This document shows, piece after piece, positions 30,868 through 55,475 of a DNA stretch of 64,000 bases. The notes beneath the pieces were generated by a model. That model saw only the letters and a list, made by a program, of their open reading frames with translations, ran no database searches and was not told the DNA's origin. The first letter of the stretch is position 1, and every line of letters starts with the position of its first letter. Origin of the DNA: Gimesia fumaroli (GTDB taxonomy: Bacteria; Planctomycetota; Planctomycetia; Planctomycetales; Planctomycetaceae); assembly GCF_007754425.1 (NCBI RefSeq), contig NZ_CP037452.1, positions 7,357,164-7,421,163 of the forward strand. Reading direction: 5' to 3'. The position numbers and the translations under genes are program-made.

Positions 30868-30889
30868 GGGCTGACCCATGTGTCAGCCC
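30868..30889 (+). repeat. Hairpin repeat family A, copy 1
   Basis: GGGCTGAC, loop CCATGT, GTCAGCCC: a perfect eight-base stem preceded by GCGTAG. It lies in the spacer between convergent sulfatase and DUF1549 genes. Confidence 0.75.
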
Positions 30890-30980
30890 GCAGGGTTCGC
30901 ATTGAAGACATCGCCCGCATGCGCACGATCAGGCCGGTTTCATTCGATCGGTTTTTAACAGTCCGAACATCGCCAGGCGG

Positions 30981-30998
30981 GGCGACGTATGGGTCGCC
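30981..30998 (+). repeat. Hairpin repeat family A, copy 2
   Basis: GGCGAC, loop GTATGG, GTCGCC, followed by TCCTACC. The upstream CCAGGCGG matches the copy at 55.30 kb. Confidence 0.75.
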
Positions 30999-31067
30999 TC
31001 CTACCCGACTATGACAGGGCCTACCCCCTGAATGGTTTGATTGATAACAGTTCCAAGACCTCCCATT

Positions 31068-31090
31068 CACCTTTGGACAAGCCAACAGTG
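31068..31090 (+). repeat. Hairpin repeat family B, copy 2 (degenerate)
   Basis: CACCTTTGG, loop ACAAG, CCAACAGTG, with two stem mismatches, followed by CCACC. The flank GTTCCAAGACCTCCCATT aligns with copy 1 at 20.7 kb. Confidence 0.7.
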
Positions 31091-31121
31091 CCACCTGAAA
31101 CTATGATCCAATCAGAGCGAC

Positions 31122-33623
31122 TTAGTGATTAAACAGGAACTCGCGGCTGTTGCTGATCGCCCACATCACATCCTGGTAGCCTTCCCGCTTATCTTTCGAA
31201 CTCTTGACGATCTGGTCGCAGTTTGCCAGTTCCTCTTTCGTGGGATACCTGCTGAAAGCCGCCAGATACATTTCGGTAAAGACGTCATGATCGGGCGTTT
31301 TTGCTTTCAGTAACTCTTCAATCCGCCCGTTTTTGGTGGATAACTTCGTGTTGATCAGTTTTCCGTTCGCCACCTGCAGCACCTGTGCCAGATTCGGCTG
31401 ACTGGTGCGCTCACACTCACAGGTAATGACGCGTTTCGGCCGTCCCAGTGTATCCAGGAAATACGAAGTATAGTTAGGGTCAGGCAGTTCAATCGCCCGC
31501 GTTCCCTGAGGCACACCACGGAACCGTTCCTGGGCACCCGTGATATCGTCGATCGCATCCAGCATCACTTCTGCCGGCAGCCGCTTCACGTTGTAGTGCG
31601 TATAGAAACGGGTTTTCGCGACATTTTCCGGTATTGGCTCCGAAGACAACTGATAGGCTCGCGAGTTCATAATCACCCGCATCAATTCTTTCAGGTTATA
31701 CCCCGATTCTACAAAGTGATCGGCGAGCGCTTCCAGTAGTTCCGGATTCGAAGCCGGGTTCGTTTCCCGCATGTCATCAATGGGCTCAATAAATCCGGAA
31801 CCCATATAGTAAGACCAGAAGCGGTTCACCATGTTTTTTGAAAACAGACGATTGTCGGGCGCTGTAATCCAGCGTGCCAGGGGACGCCTGAAATCACGAT
31901 AAGATGTCACGTCGATTGGCTCACCCATTAACGGAGTTGGCTCCATCGTTTTCCGCGTCCGCGGATGACGAATCGAACCGCTGCCTTTCACTTTGATCAC
32001 CGTGTCTGCCCCCAATGCACCGAAATCGACACTGGCTTTATTGCCCACGCGCGTGAAGAACGCAGCCAGACTGTAATAGTCTTTCTGGCTGTAAACCTCA
32101 AACGGATGATGGTGACACTTCGCACATTGCAGGCGCACTCCCAGGAAAATCTGCGATGTTGCTTCCGCGAGATCTTCCGGCTTGGTCGCAATTTTGAAAT
32201 AGTTGGCAGGTCCGTTCTCATATATCGAACCTTGTGCCGTAATGATCTCGGTCACGAAATCATTCACCGGCTTGTTCTCACGCAGGGACTGGCGAATCCA
32301 GTTTGAAAACGCCCACATGCCGCCATCACCAACTTTGTTCCGGTTAATTCGCAGCAAATCGCCCCACTTCATTCCCCAGTAAGCACTCCACGATTCAACA
32401 TACACATCACGCGCCGGATCACCGGTCAGGCCCAATAGTTCGTCAACCAACTGACGCCGTTTATCGGGCGCTTTAGAGGCCAGAAAGTCTTTAACCTTTT
32501 CGGGTGTCGGCAAGGTGCCAATCGTGTCCAGAAAAACGCGGCGGATAAAGACTTCGTCTGAACAGAGCGAAGACGGCTCAACGCCAAGTTCTTCGAATCG
32601 TCTTTTAATATGCTCATCAATAAAATTATTCGGCTTGAATTCAGCCAGATTGACTTTTGATTTGTAAGGTGAAACCACGGTCGAAATTTTCGCCTGACCC
32701 ATATACCGCACCATGATCGCGGTTTGTCCCGGCCCCTGAATTTCGACTTTCCCCCGCGGCGTAACAGTCGCAATGTTTTCAATCAGGCTGTCATACTGCG
32801 CCCGCGCGGTCACATCCTGTTTGGAGCCATCACTATACTCGGCAATCACCCGCAGCTGCTGGATGTCTCCTTTTTTGTAGCGTCGCGACATGGGAGTCAG
32901 TTCCATACCAACCACCGTCGGCTCTTTGCTGTCAATTTCTGTCACCGCTTCAGAAATCCAGGTCTGCATGATCCGATACTCATACGAATCTTTCGCAAAT
33001 CGTCTTCCGCCACCATGGGCGACTGCCATCGACGCTTTCTGTAGAATCAGACTCTTCTCAGGCTGCAAAATGGAAATTCGGCGCTGCCGGTCATCGCGGG
33101 CAATCTCGGGATAATCCTGTTCGGGAGCATAACCAAAGAGCGATAACTTGAAGCCCCCTTTTCCGAACTGAGACGCATGACAGCCTCCCAGACTGCAGCC
33201 CCCTTTATTCAAAACAGGAACCACGTCTTTGATAAAGCTGGCATTCTTTCCATTTGGAGTTGGTTTCACCGTTACAGAAATTTCTCGCTGCTTACCGGCA
33301 TGTTCCACCTGAATTTTTCCGTCGCCAAAACCAAGTGGACGCACCAGACCTTCGGAATTCACTTCCAGAATTTTTGGAGACAAACTGGTATAGCGGACTT
33401 CATGCGTCAGATCGCCGACAATTTTTCCGTCCTGCAACACGGGCACTTGAACCTGGAAATAATCCAACAGGCCGGTCAACGTCGTTTTTTCCGGCGAGAT
33501 CTGAAACGCGGGCTCAGCTGCCTGACCGACGTTAAGCAGGAACGAACAGGCTGCAAACGCAACAACAACCAGCATCCGATTCAACAAGTGATTTCTCTTC
33601 AAGTGAGTCTTCCAGTTCTTCAT
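31122..33623 (-). CDS. DUF1549/DUF1553 (PSCyt2/PSD1) secreted protein with N-terminal Ig-like domain
   Basis: An 833-residue exported protein characteristic of planctomycetes. After a signal peptide (MLVVVAFAACSFLLNVGQAA) comes a BIG_2-like beta domain (to about residue 120), a short cytochrome-like segment (GGCSLGGCHASQFGKGGFK), a second beta region, then DUF1549 with GVRLQCAKCHHHPFE (a CxxCH haem-type site) and DUF1553 (NRFWSYYMGSGFIEPIDDMR; ANGKLINTKLS). The biochemical role is unproven; haem-type motifs suggest redox. It is divergent from the DUF1501 gene, the usual partner. The ATG lies next to AAGAGAG-type sequence. Confidence 0.88.
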   Translation of the reverse strand: MKNWKTHLKRNHLLNRMLVVVAFAACSFLLNVGQAAEPAFQISPEKTTLTGLLDYFQVQVPVLQDGKIVGDLTHEVRYTSLSPKILEVNSEGLVRPLGFGDGKIQVEHAGKQREISVTVKPTPNGKNASFIKDVVPVLNKGGCSLGGCHASQFGKGGFKLSLFGYAPEQDYPEIARDDRQRRISILQPEKSLILQKASMAVAHGGGRRFAKDSYEYRIMQTWISEAVTEIDSKEPTVVGMELTPMSRRYKKGDIQQLRVIAEYSDGSKQDVTARAQYDSLIENIATVTPRGKVEIQGPGQTAIMVRYMGQAKISTVVSPYKSKVNLAEFKPNNFIDEHIKRRFEELGVEPSSLCSDEVFIRRVFLDTIGTLPTPEKVKDFLASKAPDKRRQLVDELLGLTGDPARDVYVESWSAYWGMKWGDLLRINRNKVGDGGMWAFSNWIRQSLRENKPVNDFVTEIITAQGSIYENGPANYFKIATKPEDLAEATSQIFLGVRLQCAKCHHHPFEVYSQKDYYSLAAFFTRVGNKASVDFGALGADTVIKVKGSGSIRHPRTRKTMEPTPLMGEPIDVTSYRDFRRPLARWITAPDNRLFSKNMVNRFWSYYMGSGFIEPIDDMRETNPASNPELLEALADHFVESGYNLKELMRVIMNSRAYQLSSEPIPENVAKTRFYTHYNVKRLPAEVMLDAIDDITGAQERFRGVPQGTRAIELPDPNYTSYFLDTLGRPKRVITCECERTSQPNLAQVLQVANGKLINTKLSTKNGRIEELLKAKTPDHDVFTEMYLAAFSRYPTKEELANCDQIVKSSKDKREGYQDVMWAISNSREFLFNH

Positions 33624-34152
33624 GAGATTAACTCTCTTTATATTTGCAGTTTACTATTAGAAAACATCGCATACAGGGAATGCTTCTAACAGGAACATGT
33701 ATGACATCTCAAAGTCAGCGCCATGCAAGAGGCGAGGTTGGCAGGTCGGGTGCAGGATCAGGTGGGAATTCAATGGCCTAACATAAAGGACCATTTATAC
33801 TTAAATATACTAAAAAACAAAACAAAAGCAAAAAAAACCTCTGTTTTTTAGTAATCTTTTTTAATGGGGCAGGGCAAGACGATCAGATAGCACTTATACA
33901 CTAATCGGACGCAGAACTCGTCTGCTCCTCTTATTTTACCGCTATATTTTAATGCGATCAAGGAATGATTTTTTTGAAAGCCAGATTCCTTCTTATTAAT
34001 TTCCTGCATTGAGACCGATTTTATATTTGCCTACCTTACATAAACGGTTACAATTATGTTAGTTATCTTTCCAAAATGTTAACGACATAACAATAGTCCC
34101 TCCAAATATATTCCCGCCAAGACACGGGTCCTGCCACATTAAGGAGTTTCTG
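33624..34152. other. Divergent promoter region of the DUF1549 / DUF1501 genes
   Basis: About 530 AT-rich bases, with A-runs near 33810-33840, between divergent genes. It must hold both promoters. No repeat or RNA gene was recognised. AAGGAG just before 34153 is the DUF1501 ribosome binding site. Confidence 0.45.
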
Positions 34153-35499
34153 ATGCTGAAGCTGTTCCCACAAAAAGTTTCCAATTGTGAGACCGGTAGC
34201 CGACGCCAATTTCTTTTAGAAGTTGGTGCACTCAGCGCATTTGGAATCACCCTCGATTCGATGATGCGAGGTCAGGCTCATGCTTCCAACAGCGAGTCTG
34301 GTGCGCTGGCAGATCCATCCAACGATACGAACTGCATTCTGATCTGGACACGTGGTGGAACGAGCCATCACGACACCTTCGATCCCAAACCAAATGCTTC
34401 GGCTGATGTACGTGGCGATTTTTCAGCCATCAGTACCGCGCTGCCCGGTTATCAGTTTTCTGACCAACTGCCGCTGTTTGCAAAACATGCCAACGAGTTT
34501 ACCATCATGCGGAACCTGAACCCGCAAAACGGTTCACACTCCACCGCTGATGCATTCATGCTCTCGGGTCACAAATTCAATCCGTCGGTCACTTACCCAT
34601 GCTATGGTGCTGTGATCGCGAAGACCAAAGGTTTCAAAACCAACATTCCGCCGCACATTCAAATCGGTACCAACGTAGACCGACGCTTTAATGGCGGGCT
34701 GGGCGGTTACCTGGGACTGCAATACAACCCATTCGAAATTCCCGGCGATCCAAATGCGAAAAACTTCACCGTGCGTGATATCTCTCCACCATCGGGGATT
34801 TCTATCGATCGCATGAAACGACGCCAACAGGCACTTCAGGCCATCGATACACTGCAACGACAGGCCGACCAAAATCAAAATGCCTTTGAAGCATCCGATG
34901 CCCATTATAAAAACGCCTTCAGCATGATCACTTCGGCTGATACTCAAAAGGCCTTCGATCTGTCCGAAGAATCCAACAAAACCCGCGACGATTACGGACG
35001 TCACTACCTGGGACAAAGCTGTCTGCTGGCCCGCCGGCTGATTGAATCCGGCTCACGCTTTGTCACTGTCAGCAGTGGTGGCTGGGATACCCACACCAAT
35101 AACTTCAAATCATTGAAAAAATCATTGCCCCCCTTCGACAGGGCTCTGACTTCACTGGTCCTCGATTTGAAACAGCGAGGCATGCTGGATAACACACTGG
35201 TCGTCTGGCTGACCGACTTCGGCCGGACTCCTGTCATCAACTCGGCTGCCGGTCGCGACCACTGGGCTACCGCTTCTACCATGATGATGATCGGTGCTGG
35301 TACTCCTGCAGGACAGATTGTCGGCGCCACCGATGACATCGGTTCACGTCCGGTTGGAAAAGAGTATTACCCTGCCGATGTAGCGGCTTCCATTTATACC
35401 AAACTGGGAGTGAACCTGGACCATTACTTCATCTCTCCCGAAGATGGACGTCCTCTGATTGTCAATGAAGGACAACCCATTCCGGAACTGATGGGTTAG
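34153..35499 (+). CDS. DUF1501 (sulfatase-fold) Tat-exported protein
   Basis: A 448-residue protein with a twin-arginine signal (GSRRQFLLEVGALSAFG). The body is DUF1501, an alkaline-phosphatase-superfamily fold: ILIWTRGGTSHHDTFDPKP, MRNLNPQNGSHSTADAFM, VSSGGWDTHTNNF, VVWLTDFGRTPVINSAAG and RDHWATASTMMMIGAG, with His, Asp and Thr residues suited to metal binding. It pairs with the divergent DUF1549/DUF1553 gene and the downstream PPC protein, a recurrent planctomycete gene set of unknown function. AAGGAG seven bases upstream fixes the ATG. Confidence 0.93.
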   Translation: MLKLFPQKVSNCETGSRRQFLLEVGALSAFGITLDSMMRGQAHASNSESGALADPSNDTNCILIWTRGGTSHHDTFDPKPNASADVRGDFSAISTALPGYQFSDQLPLFAKHANEFTIMRNLNPQNGSHSTADAFMLSGHKFNPSVTYPCYGAVIAKTKGFKTNIPPHIQIGTNVDRRFNGGLGGYLGLQYNPFEIPGDPNAKNFTVRDISPPSGISIDRMKRRQQALQAIDTLQRQADQNQNAFEASDAHYKNAFSMITSADTQKAFDLSEESNKTRDDYGRHYLGQSCLLARRLIESGSRFVTVSSGGWDTHTNNFKSLKKSLPPFDRALTSLVLDLKQRGMLDNTLVVWLTDFGRTPVINSAAGRDHWATASTMMMIGAGTPAGQIVGATDDIGSRPVGKEYYPADVAASIYTKLGVNLDHYFISPEDGRPLIVNEGQPIPELMG

Positions 35500-35530
35500 G
35501 GTTCATACACAAACTCCTTATTCATACACC

Positions 35531-35568
35531 GCGGTGCCCCTCTGGACGTCATGCCCAAAGGGGCATCG
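35531..35568 (+). other. Intercistronic hairpin
   Basis: GCGGTGCCCC...TGG pairs with CCAAAGGGGCATCGC between the DUF1501 and PPC genes. No real T-run follows, so partial termination or mRNA processing is more likely than full termination. Confidence 0.5.
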
Positions 35569-35609
35569 CTTTATCAGGCACTCAACTTGATCACATTCAG
35601 GACAAACCG

Positions 35610-37793
35610 ATGCGCTGCTTAGCTTATTCATTACTGACCCTCAGCCTGTTCTTCGCAACATCTTCCCGGTCGAATGCCGCCGATGCAAAGAAAACACCGC
35701 CGCCGTCAAAAATCGGTTTTCGGCAACTGGTCACGTTTAAACCGGCTGCCGTTCAACAGGGGGATAAGCGAACCATCCAACTCCACAGCAGCTACACTCT
35801 GGATGGAACGCATTCGGTCTTCTTTGATCAGCCCGGCATCAATATGAAGTTCACGGAGCCTAAGCCGAAAGCAGCGCCCCGACGCGGCCGTGGATCGGTA
35901 GGGACTCCGTTTGCCTTTGAAATCGACGTACCTAAAGATCAACCCACACGCATTTATGAGTGCCGCGTCGCCACAGATCAGGCCGTCTCCAGTGTCTCCC
36001 ATTTACTGGTCACTCCCTACCCTGTGATCGAAGAAGTCGAAAAGAAAGACAACAACAGCTTCGACACCGCTCAGCCGGTCACTGTTCCATCCACGGTCTG
36101 CGGCATCTGTGAAAAATCAGAAGACCTGGACTGCTTTAAATTCACCGGCAAAAAAGGGCAGGAAATCACACTGCAGGTTTATGCCCAACGCGTCACTGAA
36201 GCCATTCATACCATGCAGACCTCCAATGTCTATCTGATGGATTCCATTCTGACTCTGTATGGACCACAGAAACAGATCATCGCGCAGAACGATAACTTCG
36301 TCAAATCCGACTCACTGATCACGTTCAAATTACCCGCCGATGGTGAATACGTATTTGAAATCCGGGATGCCCGTTATGTCGGTACCGGAAAGTATGCCTA
36401 CTGCATCGAAGTCAGCGATACTCCTTTTGTCTATCACACCATGCCTCTGGCGGTTCAGAAAGGTAAAACCGCTGAAGTCGCTTTACAGGGACACGCCTTG
36501 AAAGGTCAGACCAAAGCCACGCTGTCTGCTGCCAACGCTAAAGAAACCGGTTGGGCTCAGCGCACCTTGAAAACCTCTGCCGGTCAGACCAACGCTGTCT
36601 GGACCCTGGTCAGCGACAATCCCCAGGTGACAGCACCCGGCACGAACATCTCAACCAAGACCGCCTTCCCGCTGACTCTGCCCGTTGGCGTCAGTGCCCA
36701 GCTCGGTGAACCCGAACAGACTCATTACTACTCGTTCAAAACCAAAAAAGATCAATACTACTTCTTCCAATTGATGTCTAACCGTATTGAACTCCCACTC
36801 GACTGTGTCATGCAAATTTACGACGACAAAGGTAAAGCACAGCGGATCTATGTCAACGGCGGGGCAAATACCGAAGCCGACGACGGACTGAAGACAAAAG
36901 ACGCGGAGTTCTATTTTAAAGCACCTGCCGACGCCGAGTATTTCGTCACAGTTCGCGACTTGCACGATCGTGGTGGCCCGCGGTTTACTTACCACCTCTC
37001 CGCACAGCTCAGTGGACCGGAATTTGAAGTCCACGGGGAATACTACTATGCACAGATCGCTCCGGGAACCAACATGCTCTGGTTTGCCAAAGTGAAACGT
37101 TTGAATGGCTTCGATGGCCCGATTGAAATGAACATCGAAGGACTTCCCAAAGGGGTCACCTTAGAACCAGTCACACTGCCTCCCGGCGTGAATGATTGCG
37201 GCCTGATTTTGAAAGCCGCCAAAGATGCGCCGATCAACGCCTCACTCGTCAAAATTACGGGGAAAGCAAAAGTCCCCGGCCCTGACGGTAAAGAACGTGA
37301 AATCGTGCGGGAAGGCAATATCACCTGTGAAATCCAATCCCGGGGCGGCGGGCAGGCACGCTGGCCGATTCACACATCGATTGTGGGCGTCACCAAGCCA
37401 CTCGACCTGCTGGAAGTCACCGCGACTCCCAGTGAAATCGTTTTGAAACCCGGCGAATCGGCGGAGATCAAAGTCAAAATCAAACGCAGCGAAGTTTATA
37501 AAGATCCGGTCACACTCGCGACTTCCTTTATGTACTTCAATTCGAAATTTGGAGAACAGCTGCCCCCCGGTGTGACACTCTCTAAGAAAAGCAAAACCCG
37601 TCTGGCCGGCGATACGCTGGAAGGCACACTGATCATTGAAGCATCGGAAAAAGCAAAGCCCATCAAACGCTTCCCGTTCGCTGCCATGGCACGCGTCGGA
37701 ATCACATTCTCGATTACGACCAACTATGCATCGAACGTGCTTTATCTGACGATCACCGATTCTGAAGGAAAAGACAAACTGGCTAAAAAATAG
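35610..37793 (+). CDS. Secreted PPC-domain protein
   Basis: A 727-residue exported protein (signal LAYSLLTLSLFFATSSRSNA). It has at least two prepeptidase C-terminal-like beta domains: about residues 145-270 (DLDCFKFTGKKGQEITLQV; ADGEYVFEIRDARY) and 350-475 (EQTHYYSFKTKKDQYYFFQL; DAEYFVTVRDLHD), then Ig-like domains (GPIEMNIEGLPKGVTLEPVT). No catalytic domain is visible. It belongs to the DUF1549/DUF1501 set by position and is probably a surface or periplasmic binding partner (inference). Confidence 0.85.
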   Translation: MRCLAYSLLTLSLFFATSSRSNAADAKKTPPPSKIGFRQLVTFKPAAVQQGDKRTIQLHSSYTLDGTHSVFFDQPGINMKFTEPKPKAAPRRGRGSVGTPFAFEIDVPKDQPTRIYECRVATDQAVSSVSHLLVTPYPVIEEVEKKDNNSFDTAQPVTVPSTVCGICEKSEDLDCFKFTGKKGQEITLQVYAQRVTEAIHTMQTSNVYLMDSILTLYGPQKQIIAQNDNFVKSDSLITFKLPADGEYVFEIRDARYVGTGKYAYCIEVSDTPFVYHTMPLAVQKGKTAEVALQGHALKGQTKATLSAANAKETGWAQRTLKTSAGQTNAVWTLVSDNPQVTAPGTNISTKTAFPLTLPVGVSAQLGEPEQTHYYSFKTKKDQYYFFQLMSNRIELPLDCVMQIYDDKGKAQRIYVNGGANTEADDGLKTKDAEFYFKAPADAEYFVTVRDLHDRGGPRFTYHLSAQLSGPEFEVHGEYYYAQIAPGTNMLWFAKVKRLNGFDGPIEMNIEGLPKGVTLEPVTLPPGVNDCGLILKAAKDAPINASLVKITGKAKVPGPDGKEREIVREGNITCEIQSRGGGQARWPIHTSIVGVTKPLDLLEVTATPSEIVLKPGESAEIKVKIKRSEVYKDPVTLATSFMYFNSKFGEQLPPGVTLSKKSKTRLAGDTLEGTLIIEASEKAKPIKRFPFAAMARVGITFSITTNYASNVLYLTITDSEGKDKLAKK

Positions 37794-37862
37794 GGATCGA
37801 CTTCTGCTCCTCTCCCCCCTATTCTGGAAGTATCCGGTTCACTTCTGCGCAGAAAGTTTAAC

Positions 37863-39089: not shown

Positions 39090-39237
39090 TCACGCTTTTT
39101 CTCTTTGCATCATTCCCGTTTCCCAGTATCGTTGCGCATACGCGGCTTGAACGGAGCGGCGTATTTTTGGCACATTTTCTGCGGCAATTTCAAACCGGTT
39201 CGCGCGTCATCGCACTCAGCATATAAGGGCTCCCTCC

Positions 39238-40431: not shown

Positions 40432-40492
40432 TCAATAAAAAACCAAAGATAGGGGTAGGAAGGACCGGTTGCTTCCGGTCCCCCCTCCCTCC

Positions 40493-40525
40493 GAACCGGA
40501 CGTGCGGTTCTCCCGCATCCGGCTC
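40493..40525 (-). ncRNA. Group II intron domain V
   Basis: The 33-base hairpin starts GAGCCGGATGCGGG, has a GAGAA-type terminal loop and ends CGCACGTCCGGTTC. It shows the AGC catalytic triad and the two-base bulge of domain V. The AGC triad is unlike the CGC of classical group IIC introns. Confidence 0.9.
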
Positions 40526-40539
40526 TCCGGTTGGTAGTT

Positions 40540-41892: not shown

Positions 41893-42384
41893 CCCTTTGC
41901 TCCACGGGCGTTACCCCGCTTCTTCGCTAATATGGATGCTCTGACTCCTACCCAACTGGCTCTTCGTACCGGTCGGCTCCAGAGAATCCGGAATCCGGCA
42001 CATGAACGCCATCCTTAAGATCGGGCAGGTCTCCCTGCTTCATCACATCAAACCTTCAGACCATTCCGTCTCCAACCACCCCTCGTTGCCCCCGGGACCG
42101 ACCTGGTTTTGAACCACGGGGCTGACCGTCGCGGAACCGCTGGCAGCGGTCCCGCACCCACTCGGCAGAGTTTCGCACGACGTCACTTGGGCTTCGCCAT
42201 TCCCTAGCTGGCTCACCACAACGAAAAGCCGAATCGAGTTCGTTATCCTACGGACTAGTCGTTCACATCCGGTTGCTCTCCACCTCCTCTCACGAGAACG
42301 CAGTTACCTTCTGTTACGAAGTTCAGGTCAAACTTCGGCAAGGACTTTCACTTCGCTGATTCAATGCGCTTGCAGGCGCACTAG

Positions 42385-42407
42385 GGGCGGAACCCATGTG
42401 TCCGCCC
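42385..42407 (-). repeat. Hairpin repeat family A, copy 3 (intron insertion site)
   Basis: On the minus strand GGGCGGA pairs with TCCGCCC around a nine-base loop containing ACATGG. The group II intron begins three bases past the stem. The original unit probably ran on into CTTTGGTTTTTT, which now lies beyond the intron. Confidence 0.85.
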
Positions 42408-42494
42408 GCCTGGTGATGTGCAATCTCAATTCAGACTTCGAATGGAACCGGAGAAAAGTTCCGAACAGCAACACTCAAACCACGTCGACTCCGC

Positions 42495-42516
42495 GGGTAG
42501 ACACATGGGTCTACCC
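42495..42516 (+). repeat. Hairpin repeat family A, copy 4
   Basis: GGGTAGAC, loop ACATGG, GTCTACCC, followed by CTAC. The stem is a perfect eight bases with arm sequences different from the other copies. Confidence 0.8.
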
Positions 42517-42551
42517 CTACACGACCTCAAGCAACGCTGAGAACGAGTGCA

Positions 42552-45873: not shown

Positions 45874-46045
45874 TCTGAATTCCTGGTCTCTCTATTGTGT
45901 AATCTTGAGCGCAATTGCTTATTTCGCCCGCACCTTATTAATCTATACTGCTGGTCAGACATTATAAACCCTCTATATATAAAGAAAAGTCAGAATTTGG
46001 GGATAGTTCAAACAATCCCCTTACCCTATACTGGTCTGTTCAATA

Positions 46046-46425
<380 letters not shown>

Positions 46426-46693
46426 TTATTGTTTCTCCCTCTCCAGCCCCTTTTAATGTCATTTCGACTGCACTACAACCAGGAAACAGTTGTCATTTTG
46501 ATTGTAAATCATTCCATTCTATTGCATATTCGACAACACTTCAAATCATTTTCGCAACATTAGATATTTCGTATCCACTTATAAATCAATCACTTACAAA
46601 CATTCGTCCATTTTATGGCACGGCACGTGCTTTAAACCTCTTTCATCAACGACAAGTAAGCCACTTTTAAACAACATAACATTAAGGGAGATA

Positions 46694-47168: not shown

Positions 47169-47207
47169 AACCCCTGGTCGAGTCCCACTCGGCCAGGGGT
47201 TATTTTT
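47169..47207 (+). terminator. Rho-independent terminator
   Basis: AACCCCTGGTCGAGT (47169-47183) pairs with ACTCGGCCAGGGGTT (47187-47201) and is followed by ATTTTT. It ends the Tyr/Asn-rich protein gene. Confidence 0.85.
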
Positions 47208-47218
47208 GGTACGCGCAT

Positions 47219-47260
47219 GAAAAAAGGACTCAGAGCGGATTTGCTCTGAGTCCTTTTTTT
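47219..47260 (-). terminator. Bidirectional terminator next to tRNA-Leu
   Basis: GGACTCAGAGC (47226-47236) pairs with GCTCTGAGTCC (47243-47253), flanked by A-runs on the left and T-runs on the right. It lies five bases from the tRNA 3' end, so it ends the tRNA transcript on the minus strand and may also stop readthrough from the left. Confidence 0.88.
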
Positions 47261-47264
47261 ACAA

Positions 47265-47349
47265 TGCCCAAGAGAGGATTCGAACCTCCACGGGGTTTAC
47301 CCCCACTAGAACCTGAATCTAGCGCGTCTGCCAATTCCGCCACTTGGGC
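47265..47349 (-). tRNA. tRNA-Leu (anticodon CAG)
   Basis: An 85-base tRNA with a long variable arm. The acceptor GCCCAAG pairs with CTTGGGC, the anticodon loop TTCAGGT sits on the CTAGA/TCTAG stem, and the T arm contains GTTCGAATC. The discriminator is A and CCA is not encoded. Confidence 0.95.
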
Positions 47350-47626
47350 CTGGGCATTTATCGTATCCCCTTTTTAGATAAACCCTTACAACAATTCCAT
47401 TTAATGAAACTTGCGGGTTGTCACACTGAGAGGCGTGACGGGGAAGCAGGTATAGTAAAGACTTTGCGCCCCTTTTTCCAGTCACACATACGCGATTTTT
47501 CCCATATCACAGCTGAGGAATTCCCGAGCTGGTTCGGTTTAAAATTGCGGTTTTCCCTATCTGCGATACCTGATAAACTGTGCATTCCTCGCTTACCTCT
47601 CAATATTCACATCATCGAACAATCCC

Positions 47627-49054: not shown

Positions 49055-49098
49055 GGCTCTGACCACGCTTATTTATCAAAAATCCCAAAGCTTGCTGA

Positions 49099-49812: not shown

Positions 49813-50324
49813 GATAACGGCTCACTTCCGCGAATCTGGATTTCATGCTTCAAAATCCAATGATATTGCTCAGGGGTATCGGGAACTTCAATTCGCCTCT
49901 GCTTTGAAACCAGTTCGAATGCCTGTTCTGTATTTAATCCATGGTGCAATAACACTCCCGCGGCGACGATCCCCGCACGTCCAATGCCGGCCCGGCAATG
50001 CACAACGGTGGAAGCGCCCGCTTGGATACCTGAATACAGCGACTTCGTAAACTGAGAAAATTCGCTCACTGATGAAGGCAAACCGCGATCCGGAAGAGGC
50101 AATGACGAAAATTGCATGCCATGCTGTTCGGCCATTTCCCGTTCTTCCCCCAGGCCGACTTCGACCGCTTCCTCAGCTTCCAGCAGCGAAACAATGTGCG
50201 AGATTCCCCAGCGGGCGATACCGGCAAATTCGTCTTCGATCCATTCGCCTGAAACGGGTTTCGGCATCACTGACAGAGAACCGGCGCCGATGGGCTGGAT
50301 CAGATATATATTTGGTTGAATCAT
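49809..50324 (-). CDS. Dual-specificity protein phosphatase-like protein
   Basis: A 171-residue cysteine-based phosphatase. The P-loop is VVHCRAGIGRAG, fitting HCxxGxxR, and the general-acid loop is SLPLPDRGLPSS. The catalytic Cys is near residue 109. It probably removes phosphate from tyrosine or serine/threonine residues, or from a lipid. No Shine-Dalgarno is visible. It is coupled to the downstream DUF6891-like lipoprotein gene by a four-base overlap. Confidence 0.88.
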   Translation of the reverse strand: MIQPNIYLIQPIGAGSLSVMPKPVSGEWIEDEFAGIARWGISHIVSLLEAEEAVEVGLGEEREMAEQHGMQFSSLPLPDRGLPSSVSEFSQFTKSLYSGIQAGASTVVHCRAGIGRAGIVAAGVLLHHGLNTEQAFELVSKQRRIEVPDTPEQYHWILKHEIQIRGSEPLS

Positions 50325-50392
50325 GTTTTTTACTTTTTTCGTACTGAATGCGTCGGAGAGGACGGTGTGTTCTTTTCAAACAGCATTGAACC

Positions 50393-50881
50393 TTACAAAC
50401 CTCGATCTCGATTCATCCACTCTTTCTCATTCCAATAAACCGACTGTGCTCCGACATCAGCCACTTCGAATGAGGGTCGGTTACTTTGAATCAACGTGAT
50501 CCATCGCTTGCCTGCAAGCAGAAACTGATACGTCTGAATTGCCATGTAATCGAGAAATCGCTTTGCACTGTTCGCATTTTCCTGATACCAGTCATCGAAG
50601 TTCCTGACGACGACTAACACGTTCTCATTTTCCGAAACCATATCAAACAGACAGTCATGGAGTGCATCCCAGTTCCTGCCAAAGTAGTCCGGGAATTCAA
50701 AACCGGCGTGCACGTCACTATAGAAATTATCCGTCGAATACCAGGTCTTCGCATCAAAGCGATAGATTTTGTACTCCTGTTGCCCAAACCACTGTAGATG
50801 CTGTTCCAGTAAATCAAGTGAAAAGTATTTCGTGACCGGCCCACGCGCCAGTATCTGAAAATCAAGTTTATTGTCGTTCAT
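50393..50881 (-). CDS. Barstar-family protein
   Basis: A 162-residue protein from the ATG at 50881. The core (FEFPDYFGRNWDALHDCLFD; VVVRNFDDWYQ) matches barstar, the intracellular inhibitor of barnase-type ribonucleases. The longer frame from 50995 would overlap the neighbouring membrane-protein gene, so the shorter start is preferred. No barnase-like nuclease is nearby, so this may be an orphan immunity protein or a protein that regulates another RNase. It is the downstream member of a three-gene run with the small membrane protein and the 51.2-kb gene. Confidence 0.85.
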   Translation of the reverse strand: MNDNKLDFQILARGPVTKYFSLDLLEQHLQWFGQQEYKIYRFDAKTWYSTDNFYSDVHAGFEFPDYFGRNWDALHDCLFDMVSENENVLVVVRNFDDWYQENANSAKRFLDYMAIQTYQFLLAGKRWITLIQSNRPSFEVADVGAQSVYWNEKEWMNRDRGL

Positions 50882-50921
50882 CGAATCAACTCTGACTGAG
50901 AGATCAATACCGTGTTTGCTG

Positions 50922-51179
50922 CTACTCTCGTTTCTTTGAAAACAGATATTGCAGAAACGAAACAATGCCGGCGAAGCGGTAGCCGGGATCGACATATTTT
51001 TCGATCACATAAAATAGAAAATAATACAGCCGGGCCGAAGACCAGACTACCAGCAGGAGCAACACTACGACCAGCCAGGATCGCGTCTCATTGATAATCA
51101 ACCCTAGCGCAAACAACAGGATGACCAGAAACAGAAACCCTTTGAGGTAAATCAATCGTTTACTTTTGAGATCGGCCAT
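50922..51179 (-). CDS. Small two-helix membrane protein
   Basis: An 85-residue protein with two close hydrophobic helices (YLKGFLFLVILLFALGLII and SWLVVVLLLLVVWSSARL) and a basic C-terminus ending SKKRE. No family is recognised. It lies 40 bases upstream of the barstar start and 13 bases downstream of the next gene, consistent with one transcript. A pairing of membrane protein and barstar-like immunity could mean toxin defence, but this is inference. Confidence 0.6.
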   Translation of the reverse strand: MADLKSKRLIYLKGFLFLVILLFALGLIINETRSWLVVVLLLLVVWSSARLYYFLFYVIEKYVDPGYRFAGIVSFLQYLFSKKRE

Positions 51180-51191
51180 GTCTGTGCTTCA

Positions 51192-51794
51192 TCATCCAAC
51201 AGGAGGTTCCACAAAGGGCGTGCATTGTATGTTATCAAATTGCTGCAGGTGTTGTTCAATGATGGTGCAATCATTTTTGTCACGAAAGAAGAGATCCCAA
51301 TACGCGGCATCGACGTCCCGGCAGACCAAAACGACCTCGTCCGGGAGTGACCAGTCTGTGACATCACCGAACCACCAGTCATCTCTCCCTTTCGAATCGA
51401 GCGCATCAAGCCTGTCCAGTAATTCACGCGGCTTCTCTGACGACAGACTTTCGCAGGCAAAATAGCAATCCCAACACGCATCGACATGATCAATATAACG
51501 AGCGAACCAGCCCGGCTTCCCCACTCGGTAATCAGACTCATCATCCAGGAAATTTGCGTAATCAAGCGATTGTTTTTCAACCATCTCAGCAGAGGCATTT
51601 CCCAGATACAAAGGAAGTGTCACACCGGCACCGCCCAGATACCACCAGCAATCATCAAGCATTTGTTGAATCGGTTTGAGAATTTCTGATAATTCCCGAT
51701 CGCCTTCTACCCGTAGTCCATACATGGAATCGAATGACTCCTCGCCTCTTTGATCCAACAGCGACTTGATTAAGCCCTCATTCTCCTGCAGCAT
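51192..51794 (-). CDS. Acidic cytoplasmic protein of unknown function
   Basis: About 200 residues from the ATG at 51794 (an upstream TTG at 51830 would add 12). The protein is strongly acidic and Trp-rich (DDCWWYLGGAGVTLPLYLG; DHVDACWDCYFACESL; GRDDWWFGDVTDWSL). The composition recalls immunity proteins, but I recognise no family. It is followed by the small membrane protein and the barstar-like gene. Confidence 0.6.
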   Translation of the reverse strand: MLQENEGLIKSLLDQRGEESFDSMYGLRVEGDRELSEILKPIQQMLDDCWWYLGGAGVTLPLYLGNASAEMVEKQSLDYANFLDDESDYRVGKPGWFARYIDHVDACWDCYFACESLSSEKPRELLDRLDALDSKGRDDWWFGDVTDWSLPDEVVLVCRDVDAAYWDLFFRDKNDCTIIEQHLQQFDNIQCTPFVEPPVG

Positions 51795-51921
51795 CAAACA
51801 ATTTATTTCCACATAATAGCGTGAGCACAAGAGCAGATGAAAATAAGAGTGACAAACTTCTACAACACTCTTATACTAACTGTTAGTTCATTTCATTCCA
51901 GACGCAACTCCGAAAATTCCT

Positions 51922-53163
51922 ATGATTCTGTCGCACCGTGTTTTGATTATTTCGCTCCTGTGCACACTGGGATGTAGTTCTCAATCCCAGCCAACGGGAA
52001 CGGAGCAGGACCATGCTGAAACAGCGGCTGTTCCGGCTGTTTCTCAGAAAAACCCTTCCGTATCGTACGAGGAGATCCTATACGAGCTTGGGGCCTTTCC
52101 GGTCAGCAAACTGACGAAACGCTATTGGAATAACGGACATCCGGGGGAGGTTTTCAGTAAAGGGGAACGGGAAGACGTGAATGGCTGGCTGCCTCCCTTT
52201 TGGGTTCGTGGAAATAGTTATCTGACCAAATCAGAAAAAACGCGTTTTGGCATCCCCAAAGCGCCGCTCAGCTATGAACGCTATATCTCTTTTCTCGAGG
52301 TAGAAACGTACCAGCAAACGAAAGATCCACTGCTGTTTGCCATCATTGAATTTACGCTGGATGAACTACACTGGCGAAAAATCAAAATTAAAAATCCCGA
52401 GGACCTTCTCAAGGTCTATCATGCCAAAATGGGGCTGGATAATAAGGTTCTTTGGCTACTCAAAAGAAGGGAATTAATTGACGGTCCCATGGTCGCCAAC
52501 CTGTATCGGCAATACCAGGACCCGCTGTTGTTTCGTTTTCTGATTCCACCAGAGCCGGGACAGGATGATTACAAAGTATTTCTGGAGCAACTTCTGGCTG
52601 AGAAGCAACTCGACACCATGCAGCGTTTTGCTGTGTTTACCCAACTGTATCAGGCAGACAAACCCACGCATCTGGCGGGTTATAAAACGTTGATCTTCAA
52701 GAATGCTGCTCGACTTCCCGATCGGTTTGATCGCTATAATATGTACGCCGCACTCATCGGCATCGGAGACCCTGAATCCGTCAAGGCAGTCAATCATGCG
52801 TTACTGAATGATCCCACTGCACAGGTCAGAGAGTTTCTCTTACGTGAGCTTAAGCGACAAGATCAAGTCGTCGAATACATAGACACGATTCATCTCCTGT
52901 GTCTGGGAAGAGGCCAGAAATGTGTGAGAGAGTTCGTTCCCAATGGACCAGGGTATTATCGTGACGAGAATATCCTGGCAGATTCTTTGGAGACCTATCT
53001 CAACTGGGCAAAGCAGAAGCAAACCTTAAACCCAAAAACGAAACAAAAAATCCTGGCGTCGTTACAGGCGATCTCGAATGATGCCTCAAATTCATTCGAA
53101 CCACGTTCATACAAACCAGGAGAAGATCGATTTGAAGCAAATAAGCCGATACAAGACCAATAA
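51922..53163 (+). CDS. Lipoprotein of unknown function (paralogue 1)
   Basis: A 413-residue lipoprotein with a lipobox (LIISLLCTLGC, Cys at residue 18). The mature protein is largely alpha-helical and aligns closely with the gene at 53977: YEEILYELGAFPVSKLTKRY against YEAILYELGAFPVSRLAKGY, and IKNPEDLLKVYHAKMGLDNK against IKNPEDFLKVYHAKMGLDHQ. The C-terminal part resembles HEAT-like repeats. A toxin-antitoxin pair lies between the paralogues. Confidence 0.78.
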   Translation: MILSHRVLIISLLCTLGCSSQSQPTGTEQDHAETAAVPAVSQKNPSVSYEEILYELGAFPVSKLTKRYWNNGHPGEVFSKGEREDVNGWLPPFWVRGNSYLTKSEKTRFGIPKAPLSYERYISFLEVETYQQTKDPLLFAIIEFTLDELHWRKIKIKNPEDLLKVYHAKMGLDNKVLWLLKRRELIDGPMVANLYRQYQDPLLFRFLIPPEPGQDDYKVFLEQLLAEKQLDTMQRFAVFTQLYQADKPTHLAGYKTLIFKNAARLPDRFDRYNMYAALIGIGDPESVKAVNHALLNDPTAQVREFLLRELKRQDQVVEYIDTIHLLCLGRGQKCVREFVPNGPGYYRDENILADSLETYLNWAKQKQTLNPKTKQKILASLQAISNDASNSFEPRSYKPGEDRFEANKPIQDQ

Positions 53164-53215
53164 ACGACTTTCGGTGATCTTCCAAGAGAGAACCCGATTC
53201 CTGCTGATTCTTTTC

Positions 53216-53245
53216 GTGACAAATCCATCAGAATGCTGGTATAAT
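53216..53245 (+). promoter_or_regulatory. Probable sigma70-type promoter of the toxin-antitoxin pair
   Basis: GTGACA at 53216-53221 and TATAAT at 53240-53245 are 18 bases apart. The expected transcription start coincides with the antitoxin ATG at 53252, so the mRNA may be leaderless; no Shine-Dalgarno is visible. Confidence 0.55.
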
Positions 53246-53251
53246 CCAACC

Positions 53252-53500
53252 ATGATAAGACCACGACTCACTGAAGAACAACGTCAAGCCCTTGATCAAC
53301 ACCATGGACTAGTGGAAGTTGATGAAGAGGGGCGGAAGTACGTCCTGATGTCCCAGGAGGTGTATCGTGAGATCATGGGAATCGGGACAGAAGAGGAATT
53401 AGCAGCCTCTCTCAGTGCATTACAAGAAGGTCTTGCGGATATTGATGCAGGCCGCACACGTCCCTTCCGTGATGTACTGGCAGAACTCGAAGACGCATGA
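53252..53500 (+). CDS. Type II antitoxin-like protein
   Basis: An 82-residue protein (starts MIRPRLTEEQRQALDQHHGL). The central VEVDEEGRKYVLMSQEVYRE resembles the fold of small antitoxins, followed by an acidic tail (AGRTRPFRDVLAELEDA) that would wrap the toxin. The ATG at 53252 is preferred over an upstream frame that overlaps the paralogous lipoprotein gene. Its stop overlaps the toxin ATG (ATGA), the normal arrangement. The C-terminal acidic segment is typical of ParD/RelB-like partners. Confidence 0.72.
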   Translation: MIRPRLTEEQRQALDQHHGLVEVDEEGRKYVLMSQEVYREIMGIGTEEELAASLSALQEGLADIDAGRTRPFRDVLAELEDA

Positions 53501-53814
53501 CGTTTCGAGTCGAACTGTCACGGCGGGCAGAAACGGATATTAAAGGTATCTATCATTATATCCGCAAACGTGGCCCTGCTGATCCAAATACCTGGAAAGA
53601 CGGTTTAGAGCAGAAACTTTCCAATCTTGAGCGGTTTCCCGAAGCCTGCAGTCTTGCTCCCGAAAATGACTACACACAGCAGGAAATCCGTCAGGCACTT
53701 TATGGCTCCTTTCGGATCGTTTTTACCATTCGAGAGCAAAGTGTCTTTGTCATCAGCATTCGCCATGCAGCCCGTCGGTTTCTGCAGAACGACGAAATTG
53801 ACAAAATCAAATAA
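53497..53814 (+). CDS. RelE/ParE-superfamily toxin
   Basis: A 105-residue toxin: FRVELSRRAETDIKGIYHYI, then RQALYGSFRIVFTIREQSVF and VISIRHAARRFLQ, the RelE/ParE beta-sheet core with basic residues at the active face. It is predicted to cleave mRNA at the ribosome or inhibit gyrase; the family does not distinguish these. The gene follows the antitoxin by a four-base overlap. Confidence 0.88.
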   Translation: MTFRVELSRRAETDIKGIYHYIRKRGPADPNTWKDGLEQKLSNLERFPEACSLAPENDYTQQEIRQALYGSFRIVFTIREQSVFVISIRHAARRFLQNDEIDKIK

Positions 53815-53976
53815 CCTGTGCAGCGTCGTCAAATCACTTTTATATTCATATCAATGAATCTCTTACCGTAAAGCTCCAGCAAACAATCCGGGGTTCGCTG
53901 CCTGACATCTGATTGATATACTCCGCTCACCTACCAAGTATTTTTTTGACACCTTGAGCGTGAAAAGAGAATTCAA

Positions 53977-55137
53977 ATGCCGAAACGTGCCTGCTGTTAT
54001 CTGTGCCTGGTTTTGTGTTGTGTCAGTTTACACTTGGAGACTGTTTCTGCGGAAGAAACAAAACAGAAGCCTGCCGTTGACCAGAAAACAAACGCGCAAA
54101 CTTATGAAGCGATTCTCTATGAACTGGGAGCGTTTCCGGTAAGTCGGCTGGCGAAAGGGTATTGGGACAATGGACATCCAGGACAGTTTTACAAAAAAGG
54201 GAAACGGGAAGACGTTGCTGGTTGGATCCGCCCGTTCTGGACTCGCGCAGATCGCTATGACCTGCCTAAAAAACCGCTCAGCTATGAGCGATATGTCTCA
54301 CTCATGGATGTCGAGACTTACCAGAAGACGAAAGACCCGCTGTTATTCGCCATCATTCAGTTTACACTGGAAGAATTTCTGTACCGGGATCTCGAAATCA
54401 AAAACCCTGAGGACTTTCTCAAGGTGTATCACGCGAAAATGGGACTGGATCATCAGGTTCTGGTTCTCCTGAAACGGCGAGGTTTAACTGCTCAAGAAGT
54501 GACCCACTTGTATGAACGGCAAAAGGTTCCTCTGCTACTGCGTTGTCTGCCGCCGCCTGAGAAGGGGCAGGATGGTTACATCCTGTTTCTGGAGCAGATC
54601 TCGTCAGGCAGAACGCTGCAAGCTGGCTACCGTTTTGAAGCTTACAAGCTGCTCTATGAGTGGGATCAGGAAAAATATCTCACTGGCTACAAGGAGTTTC
54701 TGATCAAACATACTGAGCAGACGCCTGACGTGTTAGATCGTTGTTTCATGAACGAGGCCCTGCTGAAGCTGGGGGACGAAGACTGCTTTACCGTGGTGCG
54801 GCGCAGCCTGGTCACGGATCCGATTTATGATGTGCGCACATCGATCCTCAGGGATTTGAAAGAACTAGATCTACAGCACCTGTTTCTGGATCCGATTCAG
54901 GTGCTGGCCGAGGAGAAAGCCAAAGAGTGCCGTCGTGTCTGGTTTTATGGAAGCGGTCCGGGCATGCATGTGGGAGAGACCGAAATGTATCACATCCTGA
55001 AAGGACTACTGTTTGTGTCGAATAAGCGGGATCTCTCTGAAGAGACAGTGCAGAAAATTCAGCACGCCCGCGCGACCCTGGAGGCGAAGAAACAGGAGCG
55101 GCGGGATGCGTCGGGGCTCAGGGGATTAGACAGGTAG
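53977..55137 (+). CDS. Secreted protein of unknown function (paralogue 2)
   Basis: A 386-residue protein with a signal peptide (CYLCLVLCCVSLHLETVSA) and several Cys residues in it; unlike its paralogue it does not have a typical lipobox spacing. The mature sequence matches the gene at 51922 over most of its length (YDLPKKPLSYERYVSLMDVE; FTLEEFLYRDLEIKNPEDFL). The function is unknown. A tandem duplication followed by insertion of the TA pair is the simplest history. Confidence 0.75.
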   Translation: MPKRACCYLCLVLCCVSLHLETVSAEETKQKPAVDQKTNAQTYEAILYELGAFPVSRLAKGYWDNGHPGQFYKKGKREDVAGWIRPFWTRADRYDLPKKPLSYERYVSLMDVETYQKTKDPLLFAIIQFTLEEFLYRDLEIKNPEDFLKVYHAKMGLDHQVLVLLKRRGLTAQEVTHLYERQKVPLLLRCLPPPEKGQDGYILFLEQISSGRTLQAGYRFEAYKLLYEWDQEKYLTGYKEFLIKHTEQTPDVLDRCFMNEALLKLGDEDCFTVVRRSLVTDPIYDVRTSILRDLKELDLQHLFLDPIQVLAEEKAKECRRVWFYGSGPGMHVGETEMYHILKGLLFVSNKRDLSEETVQKIQHARATLEAKKQERRDASGLRGLDR

Positions 55138-55301
55138 GTGACTGAGGGATTGGCATGGATCACATTGTTTTCGTGGTGGTCCTGATTAAGTCAGATCTGG
55201 TTTGAGCCTCGCCCGGCGGTGCTGTTTCGGGTTGTTTTTTCACGTGCGAATGTTTTTTGTGTCCCATTTGTATGGCGATATCTGGTTGTATCTCTCCAGG
55301 C

Positions 55302-55323
55302 GGGGCGACACATAGGTCGCCCC
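55302..55323 (+). repeat. Hairpin repeat family A, copy 5
   Basis: GGGGCGAC, loop ACATAG, GTCGCCCC: perfect eight-base stem, with CCAGGC upstream as at copy 2. Confidence 0.8.
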
Positions 55324-55360
55324 TGACATTTTTATAGCTGGGTTTGCGTGAACTGCTTTG

Positions 55361-55384
55361 CACGGCCGGGCAAGCCGGGCCATG
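55361..55384 (+). repeat. Hairpin repeat family B, copy 3
   Basis: CCGG, loop GCAAG, CCGG with partly paired outer arms (CACGG / GCCATG), followed by GCACAC. The upstream GTGAACTGCTTTGCA resembles that of copy 4. Confidence 0.65.
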
Positions 55385-55452
55385 GCACACGATGTGTGTG
55401 TGATTGAACTGGCCCCATCAGTCGAGTTATCAACAATCACGCGCCGCAAGGA

Positions 55453-55475
55453 GGGCGGGCACATAGGCACCGCCC
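55453..55475 (+). repeat. Hairpin repeat family A, copy 6 (degenerate)
   Basis: GGGCGG and CCGCCC flank an eleven-base interval with ACATAGG, followed by CTATG. Confidence 0.6.

What the first reader, a model, noticed from the sequence alone, without database searches (positions are those of the whole stretch)
30868..55475. Dispersed hairpin family A with covarying arms and a conserved ACATGG loop
Six copies (30868, 30981, 42385, 42495, 55302, 55453) share a loop of ACATGG or its variants and complement, while the arms differ but still pair: GGGCTGAC/GTCAGCCC, GGCGAC/GTCGCC, GGGCGGA/TCCGCCC, GGGTAGAC/GTCTACCC, GGGGCGAC/GTCGCCCC. Paired changes keep the stem, so selection seems to act on the fold, not on a fixed sequence. 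This could be a REP-type element, a terminator, or a structured RNA. It does not match a known family I can name.
Basis: seen in the sequence. Interest (0 to 1): 0.78.

Follow-up and report, generated by a model that had tools for sequence, protein, structure and literature searches.

The report
REPIN repeats left by lost transposase
The repeated hairpins are copies of a small jumping-DNA element of a type already known in bacteria (REP/REPIN), here a genus-wide family in a planctomycete whose own genome seems to have lost the enzyme that moved them.

Summary
The hairpins are real and not chance. They are GTAG-footed REP sequences (GTAG-GGGNNGAC-CCATGT-GTCNNCCC), commonly paired head to head into ~138-bp REPINs. 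The genome has 63 pattern matches against 0 for the reversed control; a whole-element covariance model finds 98 places, 62 strong. The two N pairs covary between copies. A candidate cognate transposase, a RAYT resembling published TnpAREP subclass 2.4, sits between such REPs in four congeneric genomes but was not found in this one. Where one relative has REPIN-RAYT-REPIN, this genome has a single REPIN that looks like a chimera of the two, suggesting loss by recombination. At seven orthologous REPINs most stem changes are uncompensated and stems do not diverge significantly less than spacers and flanks: covariation seems to reflect what could be mobilised, not clear present-day selection on each copy. 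GTAG REPs, head-to-head heterodimers, RAYTs and REPs inside RAYT genes are in print (PMC3733652, PMC6006769). Verdict: a well-resolved new member of a known kind; terminator or structured RNA is not supported as the primary role.

The parts
30864..31004 (-). REPIN 1, 141 bp: two inverted GTAG-REPs with an 89-bp spacer; A end at the right
   Evidence: G000 7388027-7388167, 108.3 bits; orthologue in G014 with both hairpins at 8 pairs
30864..30889 (+). B-end REP, GTAGGGGCTGAC-CCATGT-GTCAGCCC, perfect 8-bp stem
30979..31004 (-). A-end REP, GTAGGAGGCGAC-CCATAC-GTCGCCCC, worn copy; the G014 orthologue has a full stem and the loop CCATGT
42381..42520 (+). REPIN 2, 140 bp, A end at the left
   Evidence: G000 7399544-7399683, 130.3 bits
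42381..42407 (+). A-end REP, GGGCGGA/TCCGCCC arms, foot CTAG
42495..42520 (-). B-end REP, GTAGGGGTAGAC-CCATGT-GTCTACCC, perfect
55302..55327 (-). single REP, perfect 8-bp stem, foot decayed to GTCA; followed by GCCTGGAGAG like an A end
   Evidence: the model hit 55231-55327 is weak (56.1 bits)
55453..55479 (-). single decayed REP, same strand as the previous one, imperfect stem
   Evidence: (34.0 bits)

Best explanation
These are REPINs: non-autonomous elements of about 138 bp made of two inverted GTAG-footed REP hairpins, once copied by a dedicated HUH/Y1 transposase (RAYT, TnpAREP) that recognises folded single-stranded REP DNA (GTAG foot, intact stem, loop bases) and cuts and joins it. The two free stem pairs can change as long as both sides change, because the enzyme needs a stem and the loop but tolerates much of the stem sequence; arm variants therefore spread as sub-lineages. 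In this genome the cognate RAYT is gone, and at one place it seems to have been deleted by recombination between the REPINs on either side, leaving one chimeric REPIN. The remaining copies are orphans that sit between genes and may be slowly losing their stems. Shown: anatomy, copy number, covariation, intergenic bias, a RAYT between matching REPs in sister genomes, no match for it here, few compensated changes in place. Inferred: past mobilisation, recognition by this RAYT, loss by recombination, decay.
For: 63 vs 0 pattern sites; all 63 lie in a place found by the whole-element model and 54 in one of its 62 strong places. 98 distinct places with the model, 62 at 60 bits or more; 44 of the 62 show a recognisable hairpin at both ends. 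22 whole pairs with two distinct ends. Covariation score 0.361 vs 0.101 in shuffles and at most 0.081 when slid. Pattern present in 15 of 16 other genomes of the genus and 0 of 8 of other genera of the family. RAYT genes between REPs of this class in G014 (two loci, one with a stop), G005 and G002, and between variant REPs in G013. HUH (MPNHxH) and the YIxxNP motif are kept in the 4 genus proteins aligned, and both His and Y, N, P of the latter are invariant in all 8 proteins. Own genome: no match at E<=0.01 with the protein; the profile finds only other RAYT classes, at E 1.2e-4 and weaker, and one frame with stops. Chimeric REPIN at the corresponding site: left 70 nt, 1 mismatch to G014 REPIN1 and 10 to REPIN2; right 43 nt, 7 to REPIN1, 2 to REPIN2, 4 to a third REPIN piece. 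2 of 62 REPINs lie wholly in ORFs of at least 200 aa vs 66% of random stretches; 8 of 62 vs 78% for ORFs of at least 120 aa. Published assays: in two group-3 TnpAREP enzymes, stem mismatches, loop changes and GTAG changes reduce or abolish cleavage, while stem swaps had mild to moderate effects (PMC8266576, sections read; group 3 is a different subclass from the one proposed here).
Against: No transposition was observed. RAYT presence does not predict copy number in the genus: the two richest genomes (G000 with 63 sites, G012 with 58) lack it. Of 49 RAYT-holding loci scanned, of all RAYT classes, most had no REP of this class near. Only one near-empty site was found (299901 vs G014), and there the extra stretch is about 270 bp, larger than the REPIN. 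The chimera's B hairpin matches neither flanking REPIN and its loop is turned round. Insertion in G014 instead of loss here is not excluded. Decay here is only suggestive: with hairpins located separately in each genome, 95 of 112 pairs are Watson-Crick here and 100 of 112 in G014, 5 hairpins worse here, 0 better, 9 equal; the 91 vs 100 used G014's hairpins as reference and so favours G014. The genus RAYTs read YIxTNP, not the YIxNNP printed for subclass 2.4.
Confidence: 0.87

Rival explanations
1. The hairpins are kept by the host as RNA elements: transcription terminators or mRNA 3'-end stabilisers, so selection keeps the fold in each copy.
For: Stable stems and intergenic location; REPIN 1 lies between convergent ORFs; some B ends are followed by T-runs, 17 of 62 with at least 5 A in the 8 nt outside the foot on the REP strand. 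Stems diverge slightly less than spacers (6.8% vs 9.2%). REPs elsewhere have such secondary roles (background passages of PMC6006769).
Against: At 7 orthologous sites most stem changes are uncompensated and stems are not significantly slower than spacers plus flanks. The CTAC foot lies between stem and T-run. 17 of 62 is a minority.
Confidence: 0.07
2. Paired arm changes arise without any selection on the fold, by template switching inside an imperfect palindrome or by hairpin-to-hairpin conversion between copies.
For: One REPIN (G000 2958648-2958785) is a chimera whose B hairpin carries arms common elsewhere (GA) and has its loop turned round, as a flip or conversion would give. The arms of the A and B ends assort independently (same NN in 4 of 44, shuffle mean 5.5, P 0.31).
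Against: Only 1 of 112 pairs changed on both sides and stayed Watson-Crick at the 7 orthologous sites while 6 differ by a one-sided break, so in-place rewriting is not frequent there. GGG/CCC, GAC/GTC and the loop change little, which needs a constraint.
Confidence: 0.15
3. The orphan family is still mobile here, served in trans by one of the other RAYTs of this genome (194-aa or 232-aa class).
For: The genome is the richest of the 17 genus genomes in sites and has four Y1_Tnp matches, two of them over the REP_Tyr_transpos cut-off.
Against: Those genes are flanked by other repeats (CACTGTTGGC..GCCAACAGTG-like; AAAAAGGTGTCAGGAACC) and none has this REP within the 1.5 kb held on each side. At 7 orthologous REPINs 5 hairpins are worse here than in G014 and none better.
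Confidence: 0.08

Closest known systems
GTAG-tagged REPs and head-to-head REP dimers (Di Nocera, De Gregorio and Rocco 2013, PMC3733652)
   Same: GTAG foot, stem of 6-13 bp, complementary stem changes within families, HH dimers mostly 20-100 bp apart, heterodimers, RAYTs nearby; Planctomycetes are among their hosts and R. baltica is named (sections 5, 14, 16 and passages; that R. baltica is the planctomycete is recalled).
   Different: I could not see their Figure 1, so whether this very consensus is one of their 24 families is untested. Here the cognate RAYT was not found in the host genome.
TnpAREP subclass 2.4 REPtrons (PMC6006769)
   Same: Canonical long REPs with three G-C pairs at the stem foot; double-foot REPs (one seen in L016); NHxH and WQ motifs; REPs flanking the gene; REPs in frame between HuH and Y in RAYTs of other REP-bearing genomes.
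   Different: Genus RAYTs lack the internal REP (0 of 4) and read YIxTNP. Assignment here is by motifs and features, not by their tree.
REPINs/BIMEs of Pseudomonas and E. coli (recalled, and passages in PMC6006769)
   Same: Basic unit of two inverted REPs.
   Different: Here an 80-90-bp spacer in most of the 22 units, with two distinct ends (A GCCTGGyGA.., B GCggggTyGACGTG..); loop and REP class differ (comparison from recall).

Membership tests
GTAG REP superfamily | GTAG tetranucleotide at the 5' foot of the hairpin | tested here: met
   48 of 63 pattern sites have exact GTAG (counted from the list; the pattern itself contains GTAG and allows 3 mismatches, so this is biased upward)
GTAG REP superfamily | short palindrome with alternative complementary stem residues | tested here: met
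   8-bp stem; 7 of 16 pairs with changes on both sides in 22 elements
REPIN (head-to-head REP dimer) | two REPs inverted, GTAG outside, conserved spacer, many copies | tested here: met
   22 pairs of 134-155 bp; 62 places at 60 bits or more, 44 of them with a recognisable hairpin at both ends
REPIN/REPtron system | cognate RAYT gene flanked by the same REPs in the same genome | tested here: not met
   own genome: none found; met in sister genomes G014, G005 and G002, with variant REPs in G013
TnpAREP subclass 2.4 | NH[IFV]H, WQ and YIxNNP motifs | tested here: inconclusive
   NHFH or NHIH in 3 genus RAYTs and NHLH in one, WQ in all 4; YIxTNP in all 4; YIQNNP in L127 and YVQNNP in L203 among the others aligned
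TnpAREP subclass 2.4 | canonical long REP with 3 consecutive G-C pairs at the stem bottom; double-foot REPs | tested here: met
   GGG/CCC foot in the consensus; a double-foot copy in L016
TnpAREP subclass 2.4 | REPs inserted in frame inside the tnpAREP gene | tested here: inconclusive
   21 of 30 RAYTs (one per genome) of other REP-bearing genomes have REPs in the post-HUH linker; 0 of 4 genus RAYTs
TnpAREP (any) | cleavage of single-stranded REP by the protein | not testable with these tools
   needs a biochemical assay
Rfam families | match at gathering score | tested here: not met
   only RNase P, a group II intron match and a tRNA in the window
intrinsic terminator | GC stem directly followed by a T-run | tested here: not met
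   the CTAC foot lies between; A-rich outside the foot in 17 of 62 B ends and 8 of 62 A ends

The most novel reading that the evidence does not exclude
Arm diversity in REPs is made not only by old transposition but by whole-hairpin swapping or flipping between copies, so that the two free base pairs act as a rewritable tag while GTAG, outer stem and loop stay fixed. The flipped, swapped B hairpin in the chimeric REPIN left where a relative has its RAYT would be a captured case.
Probability: 0.15. Interest if true: 0.5.

Novelty: new member of a known kind. Interest (0 to 1): 0.3.

Why it matters
That allows a direct test of what happens to REP hairpins once the RAYT is lost. It also warns that covariation among repeat copies is not by itself proof of RNA function.

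Tried and rejected
Rfam gave no match for the hairpins. phmmer of the RAYT against PDB sequences gave 0 hits at E<=0.01. The idea that the two hairpins of one REPIN avoid having the same arms was tested and not supported: same NN in 4 of 44, shuffle mean 5.5, P 0.31; mean arm distance 3.45 vs 3.38 shuffled (18 of 62 elements left out because at least one end had no recognisable loop). In-frame REPs inside RAYT genes looked new, but PMC6006769 already reports them as a unique feature of subclass 2.4. RAYT of this clade (profile, E<=1e-10): 35 of 48 genomes that hold the exact REP vs 5 of 21 related genomes without a pattern hit, Fisher P 2e-4. The two sets differ in phylum and completeness and some REP hits lie in the RAYT gene itself, so this is only suggestive; G029 and G039, which had stray 3-mismatch hits, were left out of the 21. 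The pattern search in 40 genomes (own included) gave those strays (3 sites in 2 same-class genomes) and 1 control hit. Papers on this in Gimesia: searches 'gimesia'+'rep' (55 papers, 20 listed, none of the listed titles is about repeats) and 'gimesia'+transposase+repeats (1, unrelated). Other searches. R-scape was not available; the count of structure pairs was used instead.

The own-genome count of 98 places is after removing second-strand duplicates by hand from 143 rows (no overlaps left); the tool scored 150 of 1625 first-look candidates, so more may exist. Sequences were fetched for 70 of the 98; analyses used the 62 at 60 bits or more. Of these 62, 33 had a long match in the G014 stretches fetched; 6 were laid side by side for presence or absence and 11 for REPIN-to-REPIN comparison, of which 7 were kept. 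The 4 dropped (2895140, 2896710, 2940936, 2950524) had low REPIN identity or a missing part in G014; dropping them leans the sample to well-conserved copies. Confidence in the best explanation was lowered from 0.90 to 0.87 on checking, because the decay in this genome is weaker when hairpins are located separately in each genome.
Full report
What was seen. The six hairpins are in the sequence. Read on the strand that carries the foot, their consensus is GTAG, then a stem GGGNNGAC/GTCNNCCC around a loop CCATGT. Each folds better as DNA than nearly all of its shuffles. With a strict definition the window has 3 such hairpins against 0.12 expected; the three worn copies fall outside that definition.

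Genome-wide. The pattern GTAGGGGNNGACCCATGTGTCNNCCC, up to 3 mismatches, has 63 sites (25 forward, 38 reverse) in the 7.70-Mb genome and none for the same pattern read backwards. Many sites pair with an inverted partner so that both GTAGs face outwards, about 138 bp from end to end; 16 such pairs have both members in the list of 63. The two ends are not alike: one continues GCCTGGyGA.., the other GCggggTyGACGTG... A covariance model of 22 whole units finds 98 distinct places, 62 at 60 bits or more; all 63 pattern sites lie in one of the 98 and 54 in one of the 62; 44 of the 62 have a recognisable hairpin at both ends. Two of the window's three sites are whole REPINs (30864-31004 and 42381-42520). 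The third (55302 and 55453) holds two solitary REPs on one strand. All three lie between the ORFs of at least 120 aa in the mechanical list. Of the 62 elements, 2 lie wholly inside ORFs of at least 200 aa, against 66% of random stretches of the same loci; for ORFs of at least 120 aa it is 8 of 62 against 78%.

Covariation. In the 22 units, 93.4% of stem cells pair. Seven of 16 pairs show changes on both sides, and the covariation score is 0.361 against 0.101 in shuffles and at most 0.081 in slid controls. The change is concentrated in the two N pairs. The pattern leaves those four letters free, so their pairing is an unforced test. Of 141 exact-pattern sites in 120 public stretches from many phyla, 132 have both N pairs Watson-Crick. 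In the 80 stretches first listed, 88 of 93 do, against a mean of 37 and a maximum of 51 in 2000 shuffles. In the own genome both N pairs are Watson-Crick in 29 of 44 A ends and 37 of 44 B ends.

The enzyme. Four Y1_Tnp matches are in the own genome. Two genes (194 aa) pass the REP_Tyr_transpos cut-off and are flanked by a different repeat (CACTGTTGGC..GCCAACAGTG-like). A third (232 aa) is flanked by AAAAAGGTGTCAGGAACC repeats and its broken relative has one beside it. None has this REP within the 1.5 kb held on each side. In the genus, another RAYT lies between REPs or REPINs of this class: G014 2918702 (168 aa) and G014 3395964 (one stop), G005 C8 214755 (175 aa), and G002 2981650 (162 aa, next to a tandem array of four REPINs); in G013 3376854 (209-aa ORF from TTG) the flanking REPs are variants. 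Their proteins keep HUH (MPNHxH) and YIxxNP, whose Tyr and Asn I read as the active-site Y and N by comparison with the motif table of PMC6006769. The protein search finds it strongly in G014 (two), G013, G005 and G002 and in two pieces in G007, but not in the own genome nor in G012, which has 58 sites. The profile finds only other RAYT classes and one frame with stops in the own genome, at E 1.2e-4 and weaker. The REP is in 15 of 16 other genus genomes (the one without is 74% complete) and in none of 8 genomes of other genera of the family.

How it may have been lost. G014 has REPIN1-RAYT-REPIN2 plus a further REPIN piece where the own genome has one REPIN (2958648-2958785). The left 70 nt of that REPIN have 1 mismatch to G014's REPIN1 and 10 to REPIN2; the right 43 nt of spacer have 7 to REPIN1, 2 to REPIN2 and 4 to the third piece. 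A crossover between direct REPINs, deleting the RAYT, explains this best. Gain in G014 with later conversion is not excluded. The B hairpin of the chimera matches neither and its loop is turned round.

What keeps the fold. Seven REPINs are clearly orthologous between own genome and G014. Of 112 stem pairs, 98 are the same. Of the other 14, 6 are one-sided differences (Watson-Crick in G014, unpaired here), 1 is two-sided and Watson-Crick in both, 1 is two-sided and unpaired here, 1 is two-sided from wobble to unpaired, 1 is one-sided to wobble, 1 is unpaired in both, 1 is unpaired in G014 and paired here, and 2 have a gap. Divergence is 15 of 222 in stems, 6 of 84 in loops, 61 of 662 in spacers and 88 of 834 in flanks; stem against spacer plus flank gives P 0.14. 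Those counts use G014's hairpins as reference. With hairpins located separately, 95 of 112 pairs are Watson-Crick here and 100 in G014; 5 of 14 hairpins are worse here, none better. So the paired changes are mainly differences between element lineages, in-place upkeep is weak at best, and decay in this genome is suggestive only. This agrees with published assays in which group-3 TnpAREP enzymes need an unbroken stem, certain loop bases and GTAG, with mild to moderate effects of stem swaps (PMC8266576, sections 17 and 20).

Mobility. Orthologous intergenic regions differ in what they hold. Of six compared side by side, at 299901 the own genome has about 270 bp with a REPIN that G014 lacks; at 4943031 and 2891433 G014 has other sequence in place of the REPIN; at 45940 and 2900380 both hold a REPIN but a different or much diverged one; 4928987 did not align well across the element. 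These show turnover, not a clean single insertion.

Against what is known. PMC3733652 (abstract, sections 5, 14 and 16 and passages) describes GTAG REPs with complementary stem variants, head-to-head dimers mostly 20-100 bp apart, heterodimers with 'no obvious explanation', and Planctomycetes among the hosts. PMC6006769 (section 13 and passages) describes TnpAREP subclass 2.4: three G-C pairs at the foot, double-foot REPs, scatter over phyla, and REPs in frame inside the gene between HuH and Y. I met the last feature independently: of 30 RAYTs (one per genome) from REP-bearing genomes, 23 have a GTAG hairpin inside the gene and 21 in the post-HUH linker; 35 of 38 internal REPs lie there; the detector gave 0 hits in shuffled loci; 0 of 4 genus RAYTs have it. 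It is not new. I tested the heterodimer puzzle and found no avoidance of like arms.

Verdict. A new, genus-level member of a known kind, well resolved, in a genome where its enzyme was not found. Interest is modest. The sharpest open point is whether arms are rewritten by hairpin swapping.

Noticed in passing
L321/L143, L320/L127, L319/L148 and other RAYT loci L319-L348: REPs and whole REPINs lie in frame inside RAYT genes just after the HUH motif, encoding VGADPRVRP..GGHMGPPLQ-like linkers (21 of 30 genes). Already reported for subclass 2.4 in PMC6006769.
   Followed up: yes
L041 and L042 flanks; window about 31068-31100; downstream of several REPIN B ends: A second hairpin repeat, CACTGTTGGC..GCCAACAGTG(CCAC)-like, flanks both 194-aa RAYT genes and lies beside several REPINs: probably the REP of that other RAYT.
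   Followed up: partly
L039 about 1405-1440 and 2140-2170; L040 about 1910-1940: AAAAAGGTGTCAGGAACCTTAA-type repeats flank the 232-aa RAYT (inverted) and lie beside its broken relative.
   Followed up: no
window 42300-42380; L003; own 2950524: A stretch ending TCAATGCGCTTGCAGGCGCAC (or its complement) abuts REPINs at three places: another dispersed repeat or a shared target.
   Followed up: no
window 15759, 31020, 55566, 29151: (GGGCC)TACCCCCTGA-like short repeats, two of them near the REP sites, and a 12-bp palindrome CCCCTGATACGA..TCGTATCAGGGG at 29151.
   Followed up: no
L016 1551-1580: A double-foot REP, GTAGGGGCAGCCCTGTGTGGCTGCCCCTAC, right beside a REPIN.
   Followed up: no
window 46049-46426 (+), 40449-40527 (-), 47265-47349 (-): Rfam: RNase P class A RNA, a group II intron match and a tRNA.
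   Followed up: no
window 51922-53163 and 53977-55137: Neighbouring ORFs of 413 and 386 aa share repeats of 71-72% DNA identity (D1, D2): probably a tandem gene duplication.
   Followed up: no
G002 C1 2980987-2981618 (L103): Tandem array of four REPINs (arms TC/CT, about 164-bp period) next to the RAYT.
   Followed up: partly
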